From the NCBI RefSeq assembly GCF_001938565.1, contig NZ_MSYM01000008.1:275762-339761 (forward strand): DNA of 64,000 nt, in the 5' to 3' direction. This stretch comes from Rhodoferax antarcticus ANT.BR. GTDB taxonomy: Bacteria; Pseudomonadota; Gammaproteobacteria; Burkholderiales; Burkholderiaceae_C. Of this stretch, positions 56,279-56,421 are shown piece after piece; position 1 is the first letter of the stretch; every line of letters begins with the position of its first letter. The translations under genes and the position numbers were made by a program. The notes below the pieces were generated by a model that worked only from the letters and a program-made list of their open reading frames with translations, had not been told where the DNA came from and ran no database searches.

Positions 56279-56308
56279 AAGAGAAAAGGGTGGGGCTAGC
56301 CCCACCCT
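56279..56308 (-). terminator. Intrinsic terminator of the crRNA-like RNA
   Basis: AGGGTGGGGCT and its complement AGCCCCACCCT form a perfect palindrome (56287-56308). On the minus strand it is followed by TTTTCTCTTT. On the plus strand the following bases are CATCTTGTCT, so it works best for the minus-strand RNA. Confidence 0.8.
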
Positions 56309-56365
56309 CATCTTGTCTAGCGTTTCACTAGAAGTTTCTAAGTTTCAATCCACGCATTTGCGAAC
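56279..56365 (-). ncRNA. Putative crRNA-like regulatory RNA (CreR/CreA-like mini-CRISPR)
   Basis: Read on the minus strand this unit has four parts. First a mini-repeat (56365-56342) starts GTTCGC and ends GCGTGGATTGAAAC; the array repeat starts GTTCGC and ends GCGCGGATTGAAAC, and only the long stem is shortened. Then comes a pseudo-spacer of 33-35 bases starting TTAGAAACT at 56341. Then a perfect 22-bp palindrome forms a terminator hairpin (56308-56287), followed by TTTTCTCTTT. A -10-like TATCAT (56375-56370) puts the start at the first base of the mini-repeat. The pseudo-spacer seed matches a TTC-flanked site at 56410-56418. This is the layout of known crRNA-like regulators; expression is not shown. 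Confidence 0.7.
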
Positions 56366-56395
56366 ATGTATGATAACCTTAGTAAGAGTCAAAAT

Positions 56396-56421
56396 TAGCG
56401 TTTCACTTTAGTTTCTAAGAA
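56396..56421 (-). promoter_or_regulatory. Candidate target of the crRNA-like RNA, with type I-C PAM
   Basis: On the minus strand TTC (56421-56419) precedes TTAGAAACT (56418-56410), identical to the first nine bases of the pseudo-spacer. AGTGAAACGCTA (56407-56396) also matches the pseudo-spacer with a one-base shift. TTC is the known type I-C PAM. The site overlaps the -35 region of the probable cas operon promoter and abuts that of the RNA gene. Confidence 0.65.

What the first reader, a model, noticed from the sequence alone, without database searches (positions are those of the whole stretch)
56279..56421. A mini-CRISPR RNA gene that appears to aim type I-C Cascade at its own operon promoter
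Seen: on the minus strand, a -10-like TATCAT is followed by a 24-base mini-repeat keeping both termini of the array repeat (GTTCGC and GGATTGAAAC), a spacer-length segment, and a strong terminator hairpin with a T run placed where the next repeat would start. The first nine spacer bases, TTAGAAACT, recur 77 bases away directly behind TTC, the type I-C PAM, with a further 12-base match shifted by one base. That site sits at the -35 region of the putative operon promoter. Known: CreR and CreA RNAs are degenerate crRNAs that use seed-only matches to make Cascade repress cas or toxin promoters without Cas3 cutting. Inference: this is such a regulator in a type I-C locus. Autorepression would release Cascade genes when crRNA-loaded complexes run short or an anti-CRISPR is present.
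Basis: partly seen in the sequence, partly recalled or inferred. Interest (0 to 1): 0.95.

Follow-up and report, generated by a model that had tools for sequence, protein, structure and literature searches.

The report
Guide RNA throttling its own CRISPR
Between two CRISPR genes of this bacterium lies a stripped-down guide-RNA gene whose first bases match a site beside the predicted promoter of the CRISPR complex's own genes, so the complex would likely switch its own production down, and most of the related gene clusters found to carry such a gene keep the same match with different letters.

Summary
On the minus strand of the cas3-cas5 gap of a complete type I-C locus lie a degenerate 24-nt repeat (56342-56365), a spacer and a terminator hairpin. 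The spacer's first 9 bases recur behind a TTC PAM (56410-56421), 5 bp from a -10-like box of the cas5-cas8-cas7 operon.

Of 114 I-C loci, 35 have a cas3-cas5 gap >=120 bp; 23 of these (21 distinct) hold a standalone repeat. In 17 of 21 the seed (positions 1-5, 7-11) matches a TTC site in its own gap at >=9 of 10, against 3 of 420 cross-locus decoys (all between relatives) and 7 of 4200 shuffles. In those 17, position 12 mismatches in 16 and position 6 in 10, bases that type I complexes flip out (recalled).

New: the repressed operon often opens with an undescribed 40-58-aa predicted membrane protein; all 11 genomes with a hit (E <= 0.001) have it in such a gap.

Reading: a CreR-type autorepressor in subtype I-C, with a co-repressed membrane protein. 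The window's own copy is one of the weaker matches. No RNA or binding data exist here.

The parts
56342..56365 (-). degenerate mini-repeat: 3-bp stem (CGC-AAAT-GCG) followed by the 11-nt 5' handle TGGATTGAAAC
   Evidence: over 21 loci the stem score before the handle sums to 191 against 80 +/- 19 in 1000 shuffles, max 143; 4 of 21 (L020, L031, L093, L119) have no stem by this rule
56310..56341 (-). guide ('spacer') of the CreR-like RNA; seed TTAGAAACT = 56333-56341
56286..56309 (-). 10-bp terminator hairpin with a T-rich tail, in place of a second repeat
56370..56375 (-). -10-like box TATCAT of the guide-RNA gene; the same box stands within a base of this place in L004
   Evidence: prediction, not called by the consensus scan
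56384..56421 (-). target: PAM TTC (56419-56421), seed match 56410-56418, second match 56396-56407 shifted by one base
56427..56432 (+). -10-like box TATTAT of the cas5 operon, 5 bp downstream of the PAM
   Evidence: a hexamer with >=5 of 6 TATAAT matches starts 4-11 nt from the PAM complement in 10 of 18 rows and at 14-21 nt in 0 of 18
56463..56639 (+). 58-aa predicted membrane protein, first gene of the repressed operon; undescribed family
   Evidence: no Pfam, NCBIfam or PADLOC match at E <= 0.01
56647..57300 (+). cas5c
   Evidence: TIGR01876, 4.3e-54
57297..59057 (+). cas8c
   Evidence: TIGR01863, 3.5e-173
59064..60098 (+). cas7c (the first in-frame start may be too far upstream)
   Evidence: TIGR02589, 3.7e-119
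54023..56278 (+). cas3, upstream of and outside the repressed operon
63186..64000 (+). cognate type I-C CRISPR array: 11 full repeats and a twelfth cut by the window end; 48 handle strings stand in the first 6 kb of contig C19, probably its continuation

Best explanation
The segment encodes a CreR-like RNA, a one-repeat degenerate crRNA that would likely load into the type I-C Cascade and guide it, by its 5' seed alone, onto the predicted promoter of the Cascade operon to repress it. Shown by sequence: the mini-repeat with stem and 11-nt handle, the guide, the terminator-like hairpin, the TTC-flanked seed match beside a -10-like box, and the co-change of seed and target across relatives. Inferred: transcription from the TATCAT box; Cas5c cutting 11 nt before the guide; an R-loop of about 9 bp or a little more that blocks RNA polymerase but is too short for Cas3; relief of repression when array crRNAs or anti-CRISPRs take Cascade away. 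The repressed unit starts with a 58-aa predicted membrane protein followed by cas5c, cas8c and cas7c; cas3 lies outside it. In this window the 35-nt protospacer would also cover the expected -35 position of the guide's own promoter, so the RNA may damp itself as well (inferred).
For: Anatomy. 17 of 21 loci at >=9 of 10 with TTC, against 3 of 420 decoys and 7 of 4200 shuffles; the 3 decoys are L004 and L046 against each other and L104 against L107, relatives with similar seeds. Without any PAM requirement the best site is still the TTC site in 18 of 21. In the 17 strong loci position 12 matches in 1 and position 6 in 7, positions 13-17 at 72% and 19-23 at 29%: the pattern of bases flipped out of a Cascade R-loop (recalled). 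The same 1-5/7-11 pairing and TTC PAM is described for a CreA RNA of a I-B system (PMC8501985, passages). L004 and L046 carry seeds TTGGAAACG and TTGGAGACG with identically changed targets in an otherwise much diverged intergenic stretch. Four of 4 class genomes found only through the small protein have the mini-repeat and a seed match. Stem kept with different letters. -10-like boxes at a near-fixed place beside the PAM. 0 of 46 short-gap loci examined have such a guide upstream of cas3.
Against: The window's own match is 8 of 10 (1-9 contiguous, 10 and 11 mismatched), then resumes only with a one-base slip. L119 has no convincing target (7 of 10) and L104 matches 10 of 10 only behind TTT; held-out L148 matches 10 of 10 only behind GTT. 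The three held-out TTC pairs do not repeat the free-position pattern: position 6 matches in 3 of 3 and position 12 in 2 of 3. 12 of 35 wide-gap loci have no handle. 4 of 21 mini-repeats have no stem by my rule. Neither promoter is a strong sigma-70 consensus. No transcript, binding or expression data.
Confidence: 0.87

Rival explanations
1. The guide is mainly an antitoxin: it makes Cascade silence the small membrane protein, which harms the cell when Cascade is blocked or lost (a CreTA- or CrePA-like module built into the cas operon). Not exclusive with autorepression, because both sit on one promoter.
For: The small protein is the first gene behind the target. All 11 genomes with a hit at E <= 0.001 have it in a cas3-cas5 gap with a mini-repeat (8 of the 11, the window's own included, contributed to the search model or are near-identical to a row of it, 3 are not). 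It is a short hydrophobic helix, and the few differences from L004 are mostly silent (dN 0.015, dS 0.269).
Against: Loci with a good seed match lack the small protein (L009, L032, L093, L107, L125). It has no KilA-N domain or other family match. L080 seems to have a disrupted or partly duplicated copy with its guide intact. Toxicity untested.
Confidence: 0.2
2. In this genome the element is a decaying relic of a self-derived spacer that once worked; the family is real but this copy has lost its grip.
For: Positions 10-11 mismatched and a one-base slip between guide and target.
Against: Repeat, seed positions 1-9, PAM, -10-like box and terminator are all present; 12 further bases match; L115 shows a similar slip, at position 6.
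Confidence: 0.1
3. The two matching stretches are ordinary direct repeats, operators for a protein repressor, and the repeat-like string is chance.
For: A 9+12-base direct repeat would look alike in a single genome.
Against: The match starts right behind a CRISPR handle and, in 18 of 21 loci, lies behind TTC even when no PAM is asked for, with different letters per locus.
Confidence: 0.02
4. A repeat mimic that titrates Cas proteins (Racr-like) with no DNA target.
For: A single degenerate repeat with a terminator; a type I-C Racr is known (PMC10651486, passages).
Against: It sits inside the host's own cas locus, not on a phage, and has a covarying target.
Confidence: 0.02

Closest known systems
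[quoted passage not shown]
   Same: crRNA-like gene in the cas locus, partial complementarity to a cas promoter
   Different: subtype I-C with Cas5c handle; one repeat plus terminator; would repress the Cascade operon only (cas3 apart), often led by a small membrane protein
CreA of CreTA, Haloarcula hispanica and H. hubeiense (PMC8501985, passages)
   Same: pairing at 1-5 and 7-11 and TTC PAM (H. hubeiense); one degenerate repeat and a T-rich terminator (H. hispanica)
   Different: target drives Cascade genes, not an RNA toxin; bacterial I-C, not archaeal I-B
CrePA (PMC12737573, section 3.3 read)
   Same: Cascade-guided repression of a protein gene, released by anti-CRISPRs
   Different: CreP typically has a KilA-N domain; the 58-aa protein here has no Pfam match and shares the cas operon
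tracr-L of type II-A (PMC8616872, passages)
   Same: a natural guide with an 11-nt match beside a PAM makes the effector repress its own cas promoter without cutting
   Different: Cas9 and an extended tracrRNA, no repeat-spacer unit
Racr / solitary repeat units (PMC10651486, passages)
   Same: solitary repeat
   Different: phage- or plasmid-borne inhibitors that act on Cas proteins
crRNA-like elements of Shmakov et al. 2023 (not held; content recalled)
   Same: standalone repeats and mini-arrays matching cas promoters, mostly in type I
   Different: whether it lists I-C cas3-cas5 cases could not be checked

Membership tests
CreR | degenerate repeat of the cognate CRISPR type with processing signals, standing alone near cas genes | tested here: met
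   (stem absent by rule in 4 of 21)
CreR | guide with partial, seed-anchored complementarity next to a PAM, kept in evolution | tested here: met
   17 of 21 at >=9 of 10 with TTC; window copy 8 of 10; held-out 4 of 4, 3 with TTC
CreR | target lies in a cas promoter | tested here: inconclusive
   -10-like boxes at a near-fixed place beside the PAM in 10 of 18 rows, but promoters are predictions only
CreR | RNA is made, processed and bound by the effector | not testable with these tools
   no RNA data
CreR | binding represses transcription without cleavage | not testable with these tools
   inferred from short pairing
CreR | generally not coupled to a toxin gene (PMC12737573) | tested here: inconclusive
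   a small membrane protein of unknown effect leads the operon
CrePA | repressed gene encodes a KilA-N-type toxin (typical, not universal) | tested here: not met
   no Pfam match for the 58-aa protein
CreTA | repressed gene is an RNA toxin acting on tRNA | not tested
   no candidate examined
Racr | repeat mimic on a mobile element without DNA target | tested here: not met
   within the cas locus, with a covarying target
ordinary CRISPR array | two or more repeats spaced by spacers | tested here: not met
   single repeat, terminator-like hairpin follows

The most novel reading that the evidence does not exclude
Type I-C Cascade guards a membrane effector with its own regulatory guide: the CreR-like RNA holds down an operon whose first product is a 40-58-aa membrane protein and whose next products are Cascade itself. 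A phage anti-CRISPR that disables Cascade would release both at once, a burst of fresh Cascade plus a membrane-acting protein that stops growth or ends the infection. This would join CreR autoregulation and CrePA-style abortive infection in one promoter, with an undescribed protein family.
Probability: 0.25. Interest if true: 0.88.

Novelty: new variant of a known kind. Interest (0 to 1): 0.74.

Why it matters
It extends RNA-guided self-repression of CRISPR effectors to type I-C, with about two dozen natural guide-target pairs that can be compared directly. Those pairs act as an evolutionary mutagenesis of the seed: they suggest which R-loop positions selection keeps (1-5, 7-11, much of 13-17) and which it leaves free (12, often 6), and so bear on how much pairing represses without triggering Cas3. 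The linked membrane protein makes the question of whether CRISPR regulators also guard suicide genes directly testable.

Tried and rejected
Guide upstream of cas3 in short-gap loci: 46 of 79 had enough upstream sequence and were examined, none found. Handle string at the cas8 end (59049-59060): best TTC site within 700 bases 4 of 10, best site of any PAM 8 of 10 behind ATG inside cas7; the backward-read control of the handle also gives one hit at one mismatch, so likely chance. Further solitary repeats in the genome: the five other exact CGTGGATTGAAAC copies belong to one dispersed element, with no TTC seed match above 6 of 10 in the 2-kb stretches fetched, so they are not further guides of this kind. 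Rfam on 56100-56800: only a sub-threshold hit. Structure search of the 58-aa model was not run: mainly one long helix (pTM 0.48) would match anything. Three weak small-protein hits (G016, G484, G315; E 0.0065-0.009, inside 326-409-aa frames) were set aside as chance. In the order and class searches at most 16-17 first-look candidates per genome were scored, so absence elsewhere is not proven. Rows dropped: L013-L016 (weak cas5 matches); five loci without an aligned cas3; L067 and L109 (duplicates of L020 and L040); duplicates among the short-gap loci were not removed. L033 (no cas3 aligned) also has a guide with a TTC match of 9 of 10 but is outside the 21. In one search the L104 row rests on a TTC site that is not its real match. 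Seed scores at positions 1-5 and 7-11 are high by selection; positions 6 and 12-18 served only as a tie-break. The terminator count of 11 of 21 includes a doubtful one, L119. Literature: I do not claim that I-C CreR is unpublished. Ten searches listed no paper that I recognised as being on it; I saw passages of, or term counts in, seven of the listed papers (PMC12737573, PMC13131331, PMC10651486, PMC9458426 with no occurrence of the terms, PMC8501985, PMC8616872, PMC10910872) and did not open the others. The most relevant survey (Shmakov 2023) is not held; the CreR paper in Cell Host and Microbe 2023 is recalled and did not come up.

Full report
What is there. The window carries a full type I-C locus: cas3 (54023-56278), cas5c, cas8c, cas7c, a Bro-N-domain gene, cas4, cas1, cas2 and an array from 63186 with repeat GTTCGCCCGCCAGCAATGGCGGGCGCGGATTGAAAC. 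cas3 and cas5c are separated by 368 bp. On the minus strand of this gap stand, in order, a -10-like TATCAT, the mini-repeat GTTCGCAAATGCGTGGATTGAAAC (56342-56365), a guide starting TTAGAAACT, and a 10-bp hairpin with a T-rich tail (56286-56309). TTAGAAACT recurs at 56410-56418 behind TTC (56419-56421), and a -10-like TATTAT of the cas5 side begins 5 bp further on (56427).

Is the match more than chance in this one genome? 8 of 20000 shuffled guides reach a 9-base prefix match behind TTC in the gap. The 12-mer TTCTTAGAAACT occurs at one place in the 4.0-Mb genome, this one; the backward-read control also occurs once, so a single occurrence is what chance allows and only shows that there is no second site. 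One genome alone would be suggestive only.

Comparative test. 114 hold both cas3 and cas5; the gap is >=120 bp in 35 and shorter in 79. 23 of the 35 hold a standalone handle (GGATTGAAAC, at most one mismatch), 21 after dropping two duplicates. For each guide I asked for the best site in its own gap behind TTC, scoring positions 1-5 and 7-11. Own gaps: 10 of 10 in 10 loci, 9 in 7, 8 in 2 (the window and L115), 7 in 1 (L119), 5 in 1 (L104, which scores 10 of 10 behind TTT). Guides against the other loci's gaps: >=9 in 3 of 420; shuffled guides: >=9 in 7 of 4200. The 3 decoys are L004 and L046 against each other and L104 against L107, relatives with similar seeds. Dropping the PAM requirement, the best site is still the TTC site in 18 of 21. 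Examples (guide / target): L004 TTGGAAACGTTCGTTAA / TTGGAAACGTTAGTTAA; L034 TACAAGAAAAGTCTGTCG / TACAAAAAAAGACTGTCG; L009 CTAGTCTCATTGGTT / CTAGTATCATTAGTT. Carriers by record title include Thiobacillus, Rhodocyclaceae, Sulfuricella, Aeromonadaceae, Enterobacterales, Nitrospira (behind TTT) and Entotheonella, all metagenome-assembled, so the arrangement crosses phyla.

The mismatches are not evenly spread. In the 17 loci at >=9, position 12 matches once, position 6 seven times, positions 13-17 at 72% and positions 19-23 at 29%. Every sixth base of a type I guide is flipped out of the duplex (recalled), and a I-B CreA is described as pairing at 1-5 and 7-11 behind TTC (PMC8501985, passages). 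The three held-out TTC pairs below do not repeat this: position 6 matches in 3 of 3 and position 12 in 2 of 3. In L004 and L046 the changes at seed positions 3, 6 and 9 appear identically in guide and target while the surrounding intergenic DNA has diverged. The hairpin in front of the handle is kept with different letters (CGC/GCG, CGT/ACG, CGTCC/GGACG, CGTCT/AGACG, CACCAG/CTGGTG); its summed score is 191 against 80 +/- 19 in 1000 shuffles, max 143, with none found by this rule in 4 of 21. A hairpin with a T-rich tail follows in 11 of 21 by script, one of them doubtful.

Where Cascade would sit. In 18 rows with the protospacer on the strand opposite to the cas genes, a hexamer with >=5 of 6 TATAAT matches starts 4-11 nt from the PAM complement in 10, and none starts at 14-21 nt. 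So the R-loop would begin just upstream of the predicted -10 and run over the -35. The cas3 gene lies outside. Of the 79 loci with a short cas3-cas5 gap, 46 could be examined upstream of cas3 and none shows such a guide there.

Between target and cas5 lies a 58-aa frame (56463-56639) ending 7 bp before cas5. It has 36 homologs without a functional name, 100 listed with a profile, no Pfam, NCBIfam or PADLOC match, an E-x-R-L...P..RF core, dN 0.015 and dS 0.269 against L004, and a model of a short and a long helix (pLDDT 82). Searched over the genus (89 genomes), 399 genomes of the order and 369 of the class, hits at E <= 0.001 occur in 11 distinct genomes, all in cas3-cas5 gaps with a mini-repeat. 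Seven of these 11 (the window's own included) fed the model or are near-identical to a row of it. The four class hits did not feed it, though the protein of one (L147) is near-identical to the row from L058; their guides had not been looked at before. All four have the mini-repeat and a seed match: L147 9, L149 10 (16 bases contiguous) and L150 9 of 10 behind TTC, L148 10 of 10 behind GTT. This served as a held-out test. Several guide-bearing loci lack the protein (L009, L032, L093, L107, L125), so it is an addition to the circuit, not its core.

Mechanism. Best supported: a one-repeat CreR-type RNA, cut by Cas5c 11 nt before the guide, loads Cascade, which binds the promoter of its own operon through the seed and blocks transcription; pairing is too short for Cas3 (inference). 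Release when array crRNAs or anti-CRISPRs compete for Cascade is the CreR logic of the literature (PMC12737573, passages). A one-repeat-plus-terminator form is known from H. hispanica creA, where adding a second repeat gave more RNA (PMC8501985, passages). In the window the protospacer also reaches the expected -35 of the guide's own promoter, so the RNA may damp itself (inferred).

Limits. The window's own pair is weak: positions 10-11 mismatch, then 12 bases match only if the target lacks one base. The slip can be placed on position 12, a flipped-out base; L115 has a similar slip at position 6. Whether a missing base there is tolerated is open. L119 lacks a convincing target, and 12 of 35 wide gaps have no handle. 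No RNA, binding or expression data were available.

Novelty. [quoted passage not shown] The I-C form with its single repeat, Cascade-only operon and linked membrane protein is a new variant as far as the listings and passages I saw show; the most relevant survey (Shmakov 2023) could not be read.

Noticed in passing
L137-L141 (own genome contigs C2, C17, C18, C19 twice); at least 23 copies in G006: A dispersed 110-bp element (identical core in L137-L140) ends in a type I-C-like repeat hairpin and handle (CGCCCCGTAAGGGGCGTGGATTGAAAC). 5 copies in the own genome, 23 matches in G006, 3 in G014, 1 partial in G023; 4 of 40 genomes searched have it. A possible mobile source of solitary CRISPR repeats.
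   Followed up: partly
60104-60952: A Bro-N-domain gene stands between cas7 and cas4 of the operon (PF02498, 1.9e-8; PADLOC PDC-S13, 9.8e-122).
   Followed up: no
56333-56341 against 56410-56418, and L115: In two weak pairs guide and target slip by one base at or near a flipped-out position (12 in the window, 6 in L115), as if a missing target base there were tolerated.
   Followed up: partly
L107, L104: Here the mini-repeat stands on the cas strand just behind its target (L104), so the guide seems embedded in the leader of the operon it would repress, a second architecture.
   Followed up: partly
L034: A different small hydrophobic protein of about 54 aa lies in the gap beside a well-matched guide; it may be an unrelated protein in the same role.
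   Followed up: no
59049-59060: The string GTGGATTGAAAC ends cas8 just before cas7; no TTC target above 4 of 10 nearby, probably chance.
   Followed up: yes
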